From Finegoldia magna ATCC 53516 (GTDB lineage: Bacteria; Bacillota; Clostridia; Tissierellales; Peptoniphilaceae), in contig NZ_CM000955.1 of assembly GCF_000159695.1 (NCBI RefSeq), positions 693,473 through 757,472 of the forward strand: a stretch of 64,000 bases of DNA, given 5' to 3'. The notes under the pieces were generated by a model. That model ran no database searches, had not been told where the DNA came from, and saw only the letters and a list, made by a program, of their open reading frames with translations. Positions 8,883 to 64,000 of the stretch are shown here, piece after piece; position 1 is the stretch's first letter; each line of letters begins with the position of its first letter. The translations under genes were made by a program, and so were the position numbers.

Positions 8883-9632
8883 AATCATGACCACCCGTAA
8901 AACGGGTGGTTTGTTCAAGGGCTATAAGCCCGAGTGATACCAACCAGCGTCTCAAGGCGCTGGTTTTCACTCCGTTCAAACCTAACTGTTTTTGCCACTT
9001 TAGCCTATCTCTGAAAGGGATTTTTAATTTCTATTTCATAAACGGATCTGTATATTCTTTTACACTCAATTTATCAAGTGCTATATCATGTTGCTCTTGT
9101 TCTCTTATATATTTTGCTATTGTCTTTTCATTCAATCCCACTGTGCTCACATAATATCCTTCTGCCCAAAAATGACGATTGCCAAATTTGTATTTTAAAT
9201 TCGCATGTCTGTCAAACATCATTAGAGCACTTTTCCCTTTTAAATATCCCATAAAACTTGATACTGATATTTTGGATGGAATGCTTACTAACATGTGTAC
9301 ATGATCTGGCATCATATGCCCTTCTATTATTTCTACTCCTTTGTATTTACAAAGTAATTTGAATATTTCTATGAGACTTTCTCTATATTGATAAAATATC
9401 ACTTTTCGTCTATACTTTGGAGTGAAGACTATGTGATACTTGCACATCCATTTTGTGTGAGACAATGAATTAGTTTTATTTGCCATAAAATCACCTCTTA
9501 TTATTTTAGGTCTGAACAACTCTATTATAATACTTGGTGATTTTTTTGGTATAACCTAAGAACGCCTACCCGCATAGCGGGTAGTTTATTGTTTCGTTCG
9601 CAAGCGAACTCAACTGACTAAAGTCATCAAAT
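8883..9632 (-). mobile_element. IS200-type insertion sequence, copy 1
   Basis: A 750-bp segment recurs at 52331-53080 with no difference that I can see. It holds one tnpA gene and no tnpB. Subterminal hairpins lie at each end: CCACCCG/CGGGTGG near 8890-8910 and CTACCCG/CGGGTAG near 9568-9590. These fit the imperfect palindromes that Y1 transposases recognise instead of terminal inverted repeats. A further GC-rich hairpin (CCAGCG/CGCTGG) follows tnpA. The upstream end abuts the U-tract of the alsT terminator. Boundaries are those of the shared sequence, so one or a few bases may be target. Confidence 0.92.
9031..9486 (-). CDS. tnpA: IS200-family Y1 transposase TnpA
   Basis: A single-strand DNA transposase of the HUH superfamily, 151 aa, normal for IS200. 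The metal-binding HUH motif is HVH in MPDHVHMLVSIP. The catalytic Tyr with its helper Gln four residues on is YIREQ near the C-terminus. The conserved FMGYLKGKSALMMFDRHANLK block is present with one or two changes from the typical form. The start at 9486 follows AAGAGGTG; an upstream in-frame extension to 9519 has no ribosome binding site. The gene looks intact. Confidence 0.93.
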   Translation of the reverse strand: MANKTNSLSHTKWMCKYHIVFTPKYRRKVIFYQYRESLIEIFKLLCKYKGVEIIEGHMMPDHVHMLVSIPSKISVSSFMGYLKGKSALMMFDRHANLKYKFGNRHFWAEGYYVSTVGLNEKTIAKYIREQEQHDIALDKLSVKEYTDPFMK

Positions 9633-18583: not shown

Positions 18584-19060
18584 ATGGGATTTTTAGAAAA
18601 TAAAAAAGTTATCATAATTGGAGACCGTGATGGAATTCCTGGTCTTGCAATTGAAACATGTGTAAACACAGTTCCTAACACAGAAGTAATTTTCTCATCT
18701 ACAGAATGTTTCGTCTGAACTAGTGCAGGAGCTATGGACTTAGAAAACCAAAAGAGAGTTAAAGACTTCGCTGAACAATACGGAGCTGAAAACGTAGTGG
18801 TTCTTCTAGGTGCCGCAGAAGCTGAAGCTGCAGGTCTTGCAGCTGAAACAGTAACAGCAGGTGACCCAACATTCGCAGGCCCATTAGCAGGCGTTGAACT
18901 TGGATTGTTAGTTTACCATGTTGTTGAAGAAGAATGTAAAGAACAATTCGATGCTGACGTTTATGATGAACAAGTTGGTATGATGGAAATGGTTCTTGAC
19001 GTTGATGAAATCGCTGAAGAAATGAACGATATCAGAAGCGATTATTGTAAATTTTTATAA
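18584..19060 (+). CDS. grdA: Glycine reductase selenoprotein A, copy 2 (UGA = Sec)
   Basis: Same protein as the 12635 copy: 158 residues from ATG 18584, with an in-frame TGA at 18716-18718 (codon 45) inside CFVUTSAG. The only protein difference I see is at residues 31-32, where this copy has Pro-Asn and copy 1 has Glu-Asn, that is P31 against E31. A few silent changes lie before the Sec codon and almost none after it. The likely SECIS follows the TGA. It sits in the operon between grdE and grdB, the standard place. AGAAAGGATA precedes the ATG; grdB starts 19 bp later. Confidence 0.96.
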
Positions 19061-19078: not shown

Positions 19079-20389
19079 ATGGATAAAATTAGAGTTGTTC
19101 ATTATATAAACCAATTCTTCGCTGGTATTGGTGGAGAAGAAAAAGCTGATACAAAACCATTTATAGCAGAACAATTACCTCCTATCTCAGCTCAATTAGA
19201 CAGTAAATTGGGAGACGAGTTCGAAGTAGTTAGAACTGTAGTATGTGGTGACTCATATTTCGGTGAAAATATGGAAGCTGCTCAAAAAGAAGTATTGGAT
19301 ATGATCAAAGAAGCTAATCCAGACTTCGTAGTAACTGGTCCTGCATTTAACGCTGGTAGATACGGTGTTGCTGCTGGTACTGTTGCAAAAGCAGTTAAAG
19401 ATGAATTAAATATTCCTGTACTAACAGGTATGTATCCTGAAAACCCAGGTGCAGATATGTACAAAAAGGACGTATATATCGTAGAAACTAAGAATAGTGC
19501 CGCTGGTATGAGAGACGCTATGAAGAAAATTAGTAAATTAGGACCTAAGGTTGCTAAAGGAGAAGAAATCGGCTCTCCTAAAGAAGAAGGATATATCGAA
19601 AGAGGAGTTCGTGTTAACTTCTTTGCAGACAAAATCGGTTCTCAAAGAGCTGTTGAAATGCTTATTAAGAAAATTAATGGCGAAGAATTTGAAACAGAAT
19701 ATCCAATGCCTGCATTCGACAGAGTTGAACCTGGTAAAGCTATCAAAGATTTATCAAAAGCAAGAATCGCTCTTGTAACTTCTGGTGGTACAGTTCCAAA
19801 AGGAAACCCAGACCACATCGAATCATCTTCAGCAACTAAATACGGTGCTTATGACTTCCACGGAATCGATGACTTGACTTCTGAAAACTCAGAAACAGCT
19901 CACGGTGGATACGACCCAGTATACGCTAACGAAGATGGAGACAGAGTTACTCCTATCGATGTTATGAGAGAATTCGAAAGAGAAGGAGTTATCGGTTCAT
20001 TACACGAAACTTACTATACTACAGTAGGTAACGGTACTGCCGTAGCTAACGCTGATGCTTTCGGTACTGAAATTGGTGAAAGATTATTAGCTGACAACGT
20101 AGACGCAGTTGTTCTTACTAGTACCTGAGGTACTTGTACACGTTGCGGTGCAACGATGGTAAAAGCAATTGAACGTACAGGACTTCCTGTTGTTCATATT
20201 TGTACAGTTACTCCTATCTCATTAACAGTAGGTGCTAACAGAATTGTCCCAGCTATTGCTATTCCTCACCCATTAGGAAACCCAGCATTAACTAAAGAAG
20301 AAGAATATAGTCTTCGTAAAAAGATTGTTATGAAAGCATTAAACGCTTTAACTACAGAGGTAGAAGACCAAACAGTTTTTGAAGACTAA
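19079..20389 (+). CDS. grdB: Glycine reductase component B, selenoprotein GrdB (UGA = Sec)
   Basis: Catalytic subunit of selenoprotein B. The frame is 436 residues with an in-frame TGA at 20126-20128 (codon 350) in the motif LTSTUGTCTRCGA, the UxxCxxC redox motif of the family. Without Sec insertion it would appear as two ORFs, ending at 20128 and starting at 20156. It works with the pyruvoyl subunit from GrdE to cleave the C-N bond of bound glycine and transfer the carboxymethyl group to GrdA. AAAGGAAG precedes the ATG. Confidence 0.96.
20121..20155 (+). promoter_or_regulatory. Candidate SECIS element of grdB
   Basis: The TGA lies in the loop of GTACC-TGA-GGTAC, and 12 bases later CGTTGC-GGT-GCAACG (20141-20155) forms a strong stem. 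A stem-loop directly 3' of UGA is what bacterial SelB reads; this one must also encode the CTRCGA residues. Confidence 0.6.
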
Positions 20390-60479: not shown

Positions 60480-60932
60480 TTATAAAACAGTTTTAAAATT
60501 AACATTTACCAAATCTTTTATAGAATTGTAAATTAAAGTTCTATCCAGAACTTCATCCAAAAACTCTTGTAGTTCTTCTCCTTCATAAAAAGAGAAGAAA
60601 TAAATGTCGATGTTGATTTTGTTGATAATACTCTTATCTTCAAAGCCAATAACATTTAACAGATACATTGGATTGTCGATATCTAAGTTCACCTTAGCTT
60701 CGATATCTTGCAATATAGTATTTCTTTTCTTCGCAACTCTCATCATAGTCAAAATCAGCTCTGAAACGATGGAGCTTACGAAGAAATCAATTGATGTGAA
60801 TTCTTCTTTTTCTGAGTCAAAAGAAATAGATGAGTCCACAGGAATACATGATTTTTCGTTGTAAACTTTGACCAAATCATTGGATACAATAGCCCTGAAA
60901 TTTTTTTGGAATGAATTTATGTCATCATTCAT
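60480..60932 (-). CDS. OsmC-like protein without the usual cysteines
   Basis: A 150 aa soluble protein. FTSIDFFVSSIVSELILTMMRVAKKRN (residues 45-71) and the closing LDEVLDRTLIYNSIKDLVNVNF follow the OsmC/Ohr layout, in which a Cys sits in the long helix and another in CPVxxxL. In this protein those positions read Ser-Glu and Arg-Thr, and the sole Cys is at residue 29. So peroxidase activity of the OsmC kind is not expected. The ATG overlaps the stop of the MetE-like gene by 8 bp, so it belongs to that cluster. The assignment to OsmC is tentative. Confidence 0.55.
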   Translation of the reverse strand: MNDDINSFQKNFRAIVSNDLVKVYNEKSCIPVDSSISFDSEKEEFTSIDFFVSSIVSELILTMMRVAKKRNTILQDIEAKVNLDIDNPMYLLNVIGFEDKSIINKINIDIYFFSFYEGEELQEFLDEVLDRTLIYNSIKDLVNVNFKTVL

Positions 60933-62100
60933 ATTCTTTCCTCAATTTATTTCTAGCATCAATCATAGATTGTATTTTTTCTCTTATGTGGTCGTACTCA
61001 TTTACTGGTCTATTGGAGAATGTAGCAAATCCACAGTCTGGGTTTAGCCACAATTTATCCTTGTCGATAAATGTTAGAGCTTCCTTGGCTCTTTTGTAAA
61101 TTCCTTCTGTGTCTTCCTTGTCATCCAATCTAGGATTTAACACTCCAAGTCCCAAAATCATTTTGTTGTTGATTCTTTCATCTGCTAGTAATGCTTTCAA
61201 TTCTCCAGCTCTTGGTGTTGAAAATTCTAACGCCAACAAATCTGCATGAATATCTGCGAACAAATCCAAAAGCGGAGTATAAGGTCCTGTCAATAAAATA
61301 CTTTCGTTTTTACTCCAATTACCACGACACACGTGAAGTGAACAGATAGATTTGTCTCTATCGACACTATCCATAACGCTTTTTATCAAATGTGTGGCAA
61401 ACTTTAACTCTTCAGTTGGATCTTTTCTTGTAGACAATGATGCACACATGAAAGTTCTAGGTCTTCCTTCAGTGAACACAATTTCTGTAAGAACTGGTTC
61501 ATCGAATTGAATTACGTCTACTCCGATTTCTTGAAGATTTTTGATTTCTTTTTTGTAAATGTCGATTACATCTTCTCCCAAATCTTCCTTACTGTCGTAG
61601 TATTTGGAACTAACATTTGCTAGCCACATACTTCTTGTAACCAAATAAGGACCAGGCATTGTAATCTTTACAGGTTTATCAGTCAATGATTTCAAAAGCT
61701 TTAATTCTTCTGATACAATGTCACCTTTGTATTCCAATTTGCCAGTACAAATAGCGTTTTTAATAGATGTTGCAGGAACATCTAATGTCGTCAAAATATT
61801 TTCGAATTCTCTTTTATCATCGACATAATCCAGCATTTCAGCCATGCTCATTTGAGTTACGCCACCAAGTTTTTCAGAAATAAAAGATACGTAATTGTCT
61901 CTTTCTATTTCTCCACTTGTGATTACATCTATGTCCAAATCTTCTTGTAATTGTACAACTTCTTTGGTCTTATCGTACACCATTTGTTCGTAGTCAGAAA
62001 GGCTAATCATATTAGCCTTTAACATCCTACGAGCTTTCATTATTTCGTCCCCTCTTGGCATAGACCCTATCAAAGAGGTATTGAATAATTTATTGTTCAC
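60925..62100 (-). CDS. MetE-like (cobalamin-independent methionine synthase-type) methyltransferase
   Basis: A 391 aa protein of the MetE C-terminal/UROD-like TIM barrel family. It opens with SLIGSMPRGDEIM. The zinc ligands are in SLHVCRGNW (His and Cys) and NPDCGFAT (Cys), with Glu likely in ALEFSTPRAG. Full MetE has about 750 residues, so this is the short form whose methyl donor is not fixed by sequence: methyl-folate, betaine-like or methylthio compounds. The start is GTG 62100, within the end of the PhnD-like gene (11 bp overlap). It lies in a four-gene cluster. Confidence 0.85.
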   Translation of the reverse strand: MNNKLFNTSLIGSMPRGDEIMKARRMLKANMISLSDYEQMVYDKTKEVVQLQEDLDIDVITSGEIERDNYVSFISEKLGGVTQMSMAEMLDYVDDKREFENILTTLDVPATSIKNAICTGKLEYKGDIVSEELKLLKSLTDKPVKITMPGPYLVTRSMWLANVSSKYYDSKEDLGEDVIDIYKKEIKNLQEIGVDVIQFDEPVLTEIVFTEGRPRTFMCASLSTRKDPTEELKFATHLIKSVMDSVDRDKSICSLHVCRGNWSKNESILLTGPYTPLLDLFADIHADLLALEFSTPRAGELKALLADERINNKMILGLGVLNPRLDDKEDTEGIYKRAKEALTFIDKDKLWLNPDCGFATFSNRPVNEYDHIREKIQSMIDARNKLRKEYE

Positions 62101-62917
62101 TATTGAATCCCTTTAAGAAATTTCCTAAATATTCATTAGCTTCTGTAATTTGTTTGAAACCCTCTCTTCTACCAGGAATCCATTGTTTTAATCCTTCAAG
62201 ATCCATGATTTCTTTTTCTTTTTCGTTGTTGTAATCCATCTTGAACATAATATCATCAAATGCTTTGATGTCTTCATCAGAAACTTCAGGATTGAATGTA
62301 AATATACAATGGTCAAAGTTATCAGTTTTATCTAAAACTTCAACTTCGTTTTTGTCTAGTGTACCATCACTAATCCAAGCATCATAATTTGTACTTAAGC
62401 AGAATGATGCATCAACTTCTCCATTAACCATAGCGATCATGCTGTCTTTTTCTCCACCAACGTGATCTCCGTGTAAGCCAACACCGATATCAAATCTTTT
62501 TTCAGTGTAATCTTTACCATATTCTAAACCATTTTGGTGTAAATAGTTTATAGGAATAAGTCTTGCTTGTGGAGAGTCAATAGCTCCAAATCCTATTGTT
62601 TTTCCTTTTAAATCAGAAACTTTTTCAAAACTACCTTTTTTAACTACTAGATAAGTCTTCTTATCTCTATCAGTATCTCTCATGCATCCGATCTTATCTT
62701 TTCCTTCAGATCTCAAGTGAGCGTCTAAATGTGCTAATGGGGAATTCCATGCTCCATCAATTTCTCCACTCATTAAAGCATCTACTTGTAGTTTGTAGTC
62801 TTTGAAGAATACTCCTTCGATTTCAGCTCCATTTTCCTTGAAAAATTCTTCAATCATTTCCCATATTACTGTAACTCTTGGAGCGTAAATAACTGCACCT
62901 ATTTTTAATTTTTTCAT
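62090..62917 (-). CDS. PhnD-like substrate-binding protein without signal peptide
   Basis: A 275 aa protein of the type II periplasmic-binding fold, PhnD/phosphonate-sulfonate group: LKIGAVIYAPRVTVIWEMIEEFF, the hinge ALMSGEIDGAWNSPLAH and LKGKTIGFGAIDSPQARLIPINYL. Binding proteins of this kind are normally exported lipoproteins; this one begins MKKLKIGAVIYAP with no hydrophobic leader or lipobox, so it should be cytoplasmic. No ABC permease or ATPase gene is adjacent in the window. It might act as an intracellular small-molecule binder or enzyme for the neighbouring methyltransferase. GGAGG precedes the ATG. Confidence 0.8.
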   Translation of the reverse strand: MKKLKIGAVIYAPRVTVIWEMIEEFFKENGAEIEGVFFKDYKLQVDALMSGEIDGAWNSPLAHLDAHLRSEGKDKIGCMRDTDRDKKTYLVVKKGSFEKVSDLKGKTIGFGAIDSPQARLIPINYLHQNGLEYGKDYTEKRFDIGVGLHGDHVGGEKDSMIAMVNGEVDASFCLSTNYDAWISDGTLDKNEVEVLDKTDNFDHCIFTFNPEVSDEDIKAFDDIMFKMDYNNEKEKEIMDLEGLKQWIPGRREGFKQITEANEYLGNFLKGFNSEQ

Positions 62918-62932
62918 TTAATTCCTCCTATT

Positions 62933-64000
62933 TTATTTACTTGATAAAGATTGTCCTAACATAACATGCAACACATCTAAAGATGGTGCCATGATTTGTC
63001 CAGCGTAAGCATCTCTCATCAACTTTTCAATTTCAGTTTTTCTATTGTAACTAATTCCTCCACCGACTCTCATTGCAAGAGTTGAGGATTCCATCGCATG
63101 TTCAATTGCAATAACTCTGGAAGCTATGATTTTTTGTAAAGCATCTTCATCATTTCCATCTAATGCTTCGGCTGCATCTTCTGCTAATGTTCTTGAACTT
63201 TGTGCTTTCGAATATATCTTGGATAGATACATTTGAACAATTTCTATATCTGCTAAACATCTTCCATCTGGATACTTTCTGTTTTTTGCATGATTTGTTG
63301 TGATTTTTGATAATCTAATATTTAAGCCAGAATATACACTAGCTAGACCTAATAAGAAAAACTTAGTAACTATTTTAGAAACTTCAGGACCTTCTCCTTC
63401 CACTCCTAATCTATTCATGTCTGTTAACTTAACACCTTCGAGTTTCATTGGACATGAAACATTTCCTCTCATTCCAACTCCATCCCAATATTTCATATTG
63501 AAACTCAATCCTTCAGATTCCAAAGGAACTGTCCAATAAGTAGTCTTACCCTCAAAATCACATGATTTACTCAAGAACAAATAATAACTAGCAAACGTAG
63601 CAGTAGTTACCATTGACTTTGTTCCGTTAAATACAAAATAATTTCCATCTTTTGTGCAAGTTGTTTCTGGATTACCAAAGTGAGTTCCTGTTCCAAATTC
63701 AGAATTAGCCAATGCCAAATACTTATTGTGATTGACTACATCATCCACAACTTTTTCATACAAATCTTTTTGTCCACATTTAATTACAGCATTCAATGCT
63801 ACATTATGCATCATATAACATAATGCAGCTGACGGATTATACTCAGCAAAAGCCATAATTACTTTTTGGTGTTCTTTAGCTCCTTTACCAAGTCCACCCA
63901 TTTCTTCAGGAACCAAAAGTTTTAAAAAACCTTCTTCTCCCATTTTTTCAAATGCTTCTTTTGGAAATGAACAATCCACATCTGAATTTTTTCCAGCCGT
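62933..64000 (-). CDS. Acyl-CoA dehydrogenase-like flavoprotein, 5' end outside window
   Basis: The frame stays open to the window edge, so the N-terminus is missing; 355 residues plus stop are visible. The acyl-CoA dehydrogenase fold is clear: LKLLVPEEMGGLG, the middle beta domain LANSEFGTGTHFGNPETT, and AMRVGGGISYNRKTEIEKLMRDAYAG. The end reads GQIMAPSLDVLHVMLG, where true acyl-CoA dehydrogenases have the YEGT-type catalytic Glu; I see no Glu there. This resembles the flavin-dependent ACAD-like enzymes used in sulfur-compound metabolism more than beta-oxidation. It is upstream of the PhnD-like gene by 15 bp. Confidence 0.85.
   Translation of the reverse strand, partial: TAGKNSDVDCSFPKEAFEKMGEEGFLKLLVPEEMGGLGKGAKEHQKVIMAFAEYNPSAALCYMMHNVALNAVIKCGQKDLYEKVVDDVVNHNKYLALANSEFGTGTHFGNPETTCTKDGNYFVFNGTKSMVTTATFASYYLFLSKSCDFEGKTTYWTVPLESEGLSFNMKYWDGVGMRGNVSCPMKLEGVKLTDMNRLGVEGEGPEVSKIVTKFFLLGLASVYSGLNIRLSKITTNHAKNRKYPDGRCLADIEIVQMYLSKIYSKAQSSRTLAEDAAEALDGNDEDALQKIIASRVIAIEHAMESSTLAMRVGGGISYNRKTEIEKLMRDAYAGQIMAPSLDVLHVMLGQSLSSK

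What the first reader, a model, noticed from the sequence alone, without database searches (positions are those of the whole stretch)
60480..64000. Four overlapping genes (ACAD-like, cytoplasmic PhnD-like, MetE-like, OsmC-like) form an unassigned pathway
Seen: the genes overlap or are spaced 15 bp or less, so they are one unit. The PhnD-like protein has no export signal and no ABC partner in view, the ACAD-like enzyme lacks the usual catalytic Glu near its end, and the OsmC-like protein lacks its reactive cysteines. Known: ACAD-like flavoenzymes and sulfonate/phosphonate binding folds occur in organosulfur use, and MetE-like short proteins move methyl groups to or from thiols. Inference: the unit may take apart or build a methylated sulfur (or selenium) compound in the cytoplasm, with the PhnD-like protein as carrier or sensor. 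I know of no described system with this set.
Basis: partly seen in the sequence, partly recalled or inferred. Interest (0 to 1): 0.72.

Follow-up and report, generated by a model that had tools for sequence, protein, structure and literature searches.

The report
Fixed four-gene sulfur/selenium methyl-transfer unit
Four neighbouring genes in the skin bacterium Finegoldia always travel together in its relatives and probably run an undescribed chemical step on sulfur (perhaps selenium) compounds inside the cell, which would be a new way of moving methyl-type groups without folate.

Summary
On the minus strand lie an ACAD-like flavoprotein, an export-less PhnD-like protein (SBP), a short MetE-like zinc methyltransferase and an OsmC-like protein without a conserved Cys, spaced +15, -11 and -8 bp. 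In 249 genomes of the order, SBP, ACAD and close MetE relatives occur in exactly the same 24 genomes. All 24 loci keep the order ACAD-SBP-MetE-OsmC, in at least eight different surroundings, with no cognate ABC transporter adjoining. The window's ACAD is the third of three tandem copies in F. magna. ACAD-SBP alone is a pair in three actinobacterial plasmids.

New: the MetE-like family keeps the zinc and homocysteine residues of core methionine synthases and adds an invariant Cys219. In a paralog outside the unit (two related genomes) this Cys is an in-frame TGA, a selenocysteine candidate, beside a YedF gene. A 38-39% Paracoccus homolog carries a weak TusA-like extension among TusA, DsrE, SelA and TrxB genes.

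Against: no SAM riboswitch or T-box was found upstream; selenium use is common in the order; carrier links come from homologs, not the unit. Substrate and direction are unknown.

The parts
62933..64000 (-). ACAD-like flavoprotein (355 aa in window, 5' end cut by the edge); third of three tandem copies in F. magna; Ala338 in place of the catalytic Glu
62987..62989 (-). Codon of Ala338 (motif MAPS) where acyl-CoA dehydrogenases have the catalytic Glu; MAPS invariant in 38 of 38 aligned rows
   Evidence: sequence
62090..62917 (-). PhnD/PtxB-fold protein without signal peptide (275 aa), Rv1680-like; invariant motifs include DS (114-115), GD (150-151) and HC (203-204)
60925..62100 (-). MetE-like core methyltransferase without folate domain (391 aa); zinc ligands H256, C258, E292, C356; homocysteine residues S13, E64, D200; extra invariant Cys219
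61444..61446 (-). Codon of Cys219, replaced by TGA in a paralog of two related genomes
60480..60932 (-). OsmC-like protein (150 aa) without conserved cysteines

Best explanation
The four genes encode one cytosolic enzyme system. Its centre is a core MetE-type zinc enzyme without a folate domain that moves a methyl (or small alkyl) group between homocysteine/methionine and a small sulfur or selenium compound, with Cys219 (TGA, probably selenocysteine, in a paralog) as an extra nucleophile or intermediate carrier. The Glu-less ACAD-like flavoprotein does the redox step that makes or consumes the methyl donor; the PhnD-fold protein holds an oxyanion-bearing substrate in the cytosol; the OsmC-fold protein is an accessory. 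Shown here by sequence: the unit, its co-occurrence, conserved residues, lack of export, lack of an adjoining cognate transporter. Inferred: methyl transfer, the role of Cys219, the roles of ACAD, SBP and OsmC. Unknown: the compound and the direction.
For: Same 24 of 249 genomes for SBP, ACAD and close MetE relatives; order and strand kept in 24 of 24 loci, mostly overlapping or within tens of bp. The seven zinc and homocysteine residues that Price et al. 2021 used to judge core methionine synthases (PMC7857596, section 11 read) are present in the window protein and in all 27 aligned rows (read off). Cys219: Cys in 25 of 27 rows, TGA in the other 2. In those two the frame stays open and constrained after the TGA (dN/dS 0.18, resting on 12 changes), and both genomes have a tRNA-Sec gene. 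A YedF-type gene stands directly upstream of both TGA paralogs (TIGR03527 118.7 bits, cut-off 110, tested on L111); a rhodanese gene precedes the Cys paralog of L113; the Paracoccus homolog has a TusA-like extension (24.0 bits, below the 28.6 cut-off) among TusA, DsrE, SelA and TrxB genes. The SBP's second-best NCBIfam model is the putative selenate SBP (75.6 bits, below the 250 cut-off), found beside SelD and MnmH in Sphaerotilus. Precedent: MesD needs MesX, predicted to use flavin.
Against: No SAM riboswitch or T-box at gathering score upstream of the unit in any of 24 loci (a leader slightly below the cut-off would be missed), while metK in L067 and the transporter genes beside the TGA paralog in L111 do have S boxes. 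F. magna has a second, distant MetE-like gene (28%), so the unit's MetE is not its only candidate methionine synthase. MetF and PF02574 are about as frequent in unit genomes (5/24, 7/24) as in controls (7/24, 9/24). The actinobacterial ACAD-SBP pairs show no MetE relative in three loci (L064 reaches only 1.7 kb past the SBP), so ACAD-SBP chemistry need not involve it. The Cys/TGA and carrier links come from paralogs or homologs, not from the unit. Relatives named Gemella, Facklamia and Loigolactobacillus belong to groups that, as far as I recall, mostly lack selenocysteine, so strict selenium dependence is unlikely.
Confidence: 0.4

Rival explanations
1. Chalcogen relay rather than methyl transfer: the MetE-like enzyme takes persulfide sulfur or selenide from carrier proteins on Cys219 and passes it to a homocysteine-like acceptor; ACAD, SBP and OsmC make or hold the acceptor.
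For: TusA-like extension, TusA/DsrE/SelA/TrxB neighbours, YedF and rhodanese beside paralogs; tRNA-Sec at 62 bits or more in 24 of 24 unit genomes against 8 of 24 control genomes.
Against: The unit itself has no carrier gene. SelD is over its cut-off in 199 of 249 genomes of the order (all 24 unit genomes, so 175 of the other 225), so selenium use is common and the contrast with my 24 controls is only moderate; genomes are related and not independent. Paracoccus homolog is only 38-39% identical.
Confidence: 0.25
2. The export-less PhnD-fold protein is itself an enzyme (as cytosolic PBP-fold Thi5 is, and DszB, the latter recalled) and, with the ACAD, makes or breaks a small molecule; MetE-OsmC supply one later step in Firmicutes and radical SAM/DoxX proteins in actinobacteria.
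For: No signal peptide in the aligned relatives; invariant His203-Cys204; ACAD-SBP alone conserved in three actinobacterial plasmids with DoxX-like or radical SAM genes nearby; Thi5 among Foldseek matches, though only at ranks 48-50.
Confidence: 0.2
3. The unit is the organism's anaerobic methionine synthase, a folate-independent analogue of MesD/MesX serving methionine supply.
For: Homocysteine and zinc residues kept; 17 of 24 unit genomes have neither MetF nor PF02574; F. magna G001 has LuxS, a homocysteine source.
Against: No S box or T-box found upstream; LuxS in only 2 of 24 unit genomes (3 of 24 controls); a second MetE-like gene in F. magna; no enrichment against controls.
Confidence: 0.12
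4. The SBP is an orphan transport or sensor part working with an ABC transporter encoded elsewhere.
For: Clear PhnD family membership by sequence and fold.
Against: No export signal, in-frame stop before the start; no selenate-type permease match in 24 loci; one PhnE-type permease match (L098) in an operon with its own binding protein; 12 of 24 stretches hold some generic ABC ATPase, none paired with this SBP.
Confidence: 0.03

Closest known systems
Folate-independent core methionine synthases MesA-MesD, in particular MesD+MesX (Price 2021, PMC7857596)
   Same: MetE catalytic domain without folate domain; same zinc and homocysteine residues; partner protein(s) proposed to supply the methyl group, a flavin enzyme in prediction
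   Different: Extra Cys219; partners are ACAD, SBP and OsmC, not DUF1852; host is an anaerobe while MesD needs oxygen; no Wood-Ljungdahl link tested
Rv1679 (FadE16) / Rv1680 SBP-like families (NCBIfam NF049984, NF049985)
   Same: Best NCBIfam models for ACAD and SBP; adjacent ACAD-SBP pair seen in three actinobacterial plasmids
   Different: Window proteins far below both curated cut-offs; actinobacterial neighbours are DoxX/radical SAM, not MetE/OsmC
Putative selenate ABC transporter SBP (TIGR04553) and PhnD/PtxB oxyanion SBPs
   Same: Fold and several motifs (alignment)
   Different: No export signal, no permease or ATPase partner; Ser-rich anion site replaced by DSPQA
Acyl-CoA dehydrogenases (butyryl-CoA, isovaleryl-CoA) and 3-sulfinopropionyl-CoA desulfinase
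   Different: No catalytic Glu at either usual site

Membership tests
Core methionine synthase (MesA-D type) | MetE catalytic domain, no N-terminal folate domain | tested here: met
   391 aa, Meth_synt_2 over residues 6-363
Core methionine synthase (MesA-D type) | Zinc ligands H641, C643, E665, C726 (E. coli numbering) | tested here: met
   H256, C258, E292, C356 in all 27 rows
Core methionine synthase (MesA-D type) | Homocysteine-binding S433, E484, D599 | tested here: met
   S13, E64, D200 in all 27 rows
Core methionine synthase (MesA-D type) | Makes methionine from homocysteine | not testable with these tools
   needs enzyme assay or complementation
MesD/MesX | MesX (DUF1852) encoded with it | tested here: not met
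   No DUF1852 among the four unit proteins; whole genomes not searched for it
ABC transporter substrate-binding protein (PhnD) | PBP fold of the phosphonate-binding family | tested here: met
ABC transporter substrate-binding protein (PhnD) | Export signal or lipobox | tested here: not met
   Starts MKKLKIGAVIYAP, in-frame stop before ATG
ABC transporter substrate-binding protein (PhnD) | Adjoining permease and ATPase | tested here: not met
   None that fits in 24 loci; see rival 4 for partial matches
Acyl-CoA dehydrogenase (dehydrogenating) | ACAD fold | tested here: met
   Pfam, model and fold match
Acyl-CoA dehydrogenase (dehydrogenating) | Catalytic Glu | tested here: not met
   Ala338 invariant in 38 of 38 rows
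OsmC/Ohr thiol peroxidase | OsmC sequence family | tested here: met
   At cut-off for the window protein, 18 of 22 relatives
OsmC/Ohr thiol peroxidase | Two reactive cysteines | tested here: not met
   No conserved Cys in 22 rows
Rv1679/Rv1680 families (NCBIfam) | Score over curated cut-off | tested here: not met
   197 of 600 and 191 of 400 bits
Selenoprotein (MetE-like paralog in L111, L112; not the window gene) | In-frame TGA at a conserved Cys, open frame after it, tRNA-Sec in genome | tested here: met
Selenoprotein (MetE-like paralog in L111, L112; not the window gene) | SECIS element after the TGA | tested here: inconclusive
   No Rfam SECIS in L111; a short GGUCA-AGGU-UGAUC hairpin can form but lowest-energy folds of the two sequences differ

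The most novel reading that the evidence does not exclude
The unit is a fifth kind of folate-independent methyl-transfer system: an anaerobic route in which a cytosolic oxyanion-binding protein and a Glu-less ACAD flavoenzyme turn an organosulfur or organoselenium compound into a methyl donor or acceptor for a MetE-like zinc enzyme that works through a Cys (in paralogs a selenocysteine), i.e. also the first methionine-synthase-like selenoprotein family.
Probability: 0.25. Interest if true: 0.85.

Novelty: new variant of a known kind. Interest (0 to 1): 0.6.

Why it matters
Short MetE-like proteins are often annotated as methionine synthases although their methyl donors are unknown. A strictly conserved partner set, and a nucleophilic Cys that becomes TGA in a paralog, give a concrete, testable handle on what one such clade does in anaerobes of skin and mucosa. 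It would also give a function to the ACAD/PhnD-like pair that mycobacteria share, for which my searches found only one-line annotations.

Tried and rejected
Methionine-supply operon: weakened, no S box or T-box upstream at gathering score in 24 loci, no MetF/PF02574 contrast. Selenium-specific unit: tRNA-Sec 24/24 against 8/24 looked strong (the 62-bit line is mine, the next hit is 49 bits), but SelD is over its cut-off in 199 of 249 genomes of the order (24 of 24 unit genomes, 15 of the 24 controls by E-value), and named relatives are in groups I recall as lacking selenocysteine. Transporter: rejected. DszB-like desulfinase: an analogy from memory; DszB did not appear in the fold lists shown, which excludes nothing. 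Methylocystis and Indioceanicola ACADs from plasmids sit in other contexts (SfnG; PAS kinase) and were not used. Phylum sample with NF049985: of 299 genomes, 66 match but only G001 exceeds 82 bits. Class sample: 7 of 391 match, 5 strongly, all 5 already in the order set. Phages: no match.

Papers. Read: PMC7857596 abstract/outline, passages, sections 8, 11, 13. Passages only: PMC8562490, PMC9312934. Listings only: everything else. 'Not in print' rests on ten searches (two searches listed 12 of 22 and 12 of 38); the library lacks most subscription papers.

Rows dropped: the MetE alignment used 23 of 25 unit sequences (L001, L065 left out, both 97% identical to the window) plus four homologs; OsmC alignment A4 used 22 of 25 (L001, L101, L105 left out).
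Full report
What is there. The window is 97% identical at protein level to Finegoldia magna DSM 20470 around these genes (L001). Four genes run on the minus strand: ACAD-like 64000-62933, SBP 62917-62090, MetE-like 62100-60925, OsmC-like 60932-60480, spaced +15, -11 and -8 bp. Downstream stand a T-box leader (92.2 bits, gathering 93) and trpP, a separate unit. Upstream, outside the window, L001 has two further ACAD paralogs (58-61% and 74-76% identical to the third) and then a gene that I read by eye as pyruvate:ferredoxin oxidoreductase. The window's ACAD is thus the extra, diverged copy; the copy that relatives keep is most like ACAD1.

Is it a unit? In 249 genomes of the order, the SBP (E<=1e-30) is in 24, ACAD1 (E<=1e-50) in 24 and MetE at 477 bits or more in 24, and the three sets are identical. 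In one search, 31 genomes passed E<=1e-20; the other seven hold only distant MetE homologs (97 bits or less). In all 24 loci the order is ACAD(s)-SBP-MetE-OsmC on one strand: 21 with one ACAD, two with two, one with three. Surroundings differ in at least eight ways, judged by eye. Outside the order the unit is rare: 5 strong matches in 391 genomes of the class, all from the order, and only G001 above 82 bits in 299 of the phylum. Protein names show SBP relatives in Gemella, Facklamia, Mogibacterium and Eggerthellaceae and ACAD relatives in Bacillus, Paenibacillus, Loigolactobacillus and others; their neighbourhoods were not available.

ACAD. Pfam, model (pLDDT 92.7) and fold search give a standard acyl-CoA dehydrogenase fold. 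The position of the catalytic Glu is Ala in the motif MAPS, invariant in 38 of 38 rows, and MAPT in three actinobacterial relatives and one alphaproteobacterial one (by eye). So loss of this base is a mark of the subfamily, not a defect of the Finegoldia copy.

MetE-like. It lacks the folate domain and keeps the zinc ligands (H256, C258, E292, C356) and homocysteine residues (S13, E64, D200) that Price et al. used for core methionine synthases. It adds an invariant Cys219, 19 residues after D200. Three genomes have a second, 41-45% identical copy outside the unit. In two of them (G439, G021; 381 of 396 codons encode the same residue) the Cys219 codon is TGA with the frame open on both sides; changes after the TGA are constrained (7 synonymous, 5 nonsynonymous; dN/dS 0.18) as before it (0.27). 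Both genomes have tRNA-Sec. No Rfam SECIS was found, and the folds after the TGA are not consistent. The gene upstream is YedF-type; other YedF genes that I read stand with DUF3343 genes, two of three also with SelD. In L113 a rhodanese gene precedes the Cys version. In Paracoccus ferrooxidans the homolog has a TusA-like extension (below cut-off) among TusA, DsrE, SelA and TrxB genes. These links are to sulfur and selenium carriers, but all come from outside the unit.

OsmC-like. Weak but consistent OsmC match (18 of 22), no conserved Cys, no convincing solved relative. Six of 24 loci have a CMD-type gene just downstream (L069 and L093 by Pfam; four by eye).

Genome context tests. With 24 unit genomes and 24 controls (nearest relatives without a strong SBP match, part of those): MetF 5 against 7, PF02574 7 against 9, LuxS 2 against 3, tRNA-Sec 24 against 8. 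SelD is over its cut-off in 199 of 249 genomes of the order, so the tRNA-Sec contrast is suggestive at most, since the genomes are related and my controls are poor in selenium genes (15 of 24 with SelD by E-value). No SAM riboswitch or T-box precedes the unit at gathering score.

Mechanism. My best account is a cytosolic methyl- or alkyl-transfer system on a sulfur (perhaps selenium) compound, with homocysteine/methionine on one side and Cys219 as extra nucleophile. It works like the MesD/MesX pair in that a core MetE needs dedicated redox partners, but it is not a member of MesD. A relay of sulfur or selenium itself, and an enzymatic PhnD-fold protein, remain live rivals. The compound, the direction and the role of each partner are not shown.

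Noticed in passing
L111 7692-8879 (+) and L112 7222-8409 (-): MetE-like paralog with one in-frame TGA at a Cys conserved throughout the family, next to a YedF-type gene: candidate new selenoprotein family. In L111 a SAM riboswitch (9029-9122) follows, before ABC transporter genes that look like a methionine transporter.
   Followed up: partly
L106 8641-10122 (+): Paracoccus MetE-like protein with N-terminal TusA-like extension in a TusA-DsrE-hypothetical-hypothetical-MetE-SelA-TrxB cluster.
   Followed up: partly
window 18584-19060 and 19079-20389 (+): Two selenoprotein genes of glycine reductase type (by eye GrdA and GrdB, each with one in-frame TGA), the second with a SECIS_4 match at 20129-20166.
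   Followed up: partly
window 60429-60194 (-): T-box leader scoring 92.2, just under the Rfam cut-off of 93, upstream of trpP.
   Followed up: no
L062 1-1660 and 7850-9849: Miltoncostaea plasmid with selA and selD about 6 kb from its ACAD-SBP pair.
   Followed up: no
L102, L103, L104, L105 just downstream of the unit: 6S RNA gene follows the OsmC-like gene in four related genomes.
   Followed up: no
L069, L093, L094, L099, L100, L101: A CMD/AhpD-like gene with a CxxC motif follows the OsmC-like gene in 6 of 24 loci.
   Followed up: partly
L114 328-1458 (-): A second lone ACAD of this subfamily (46%) in G442, away from the unit.
   Followed up: no
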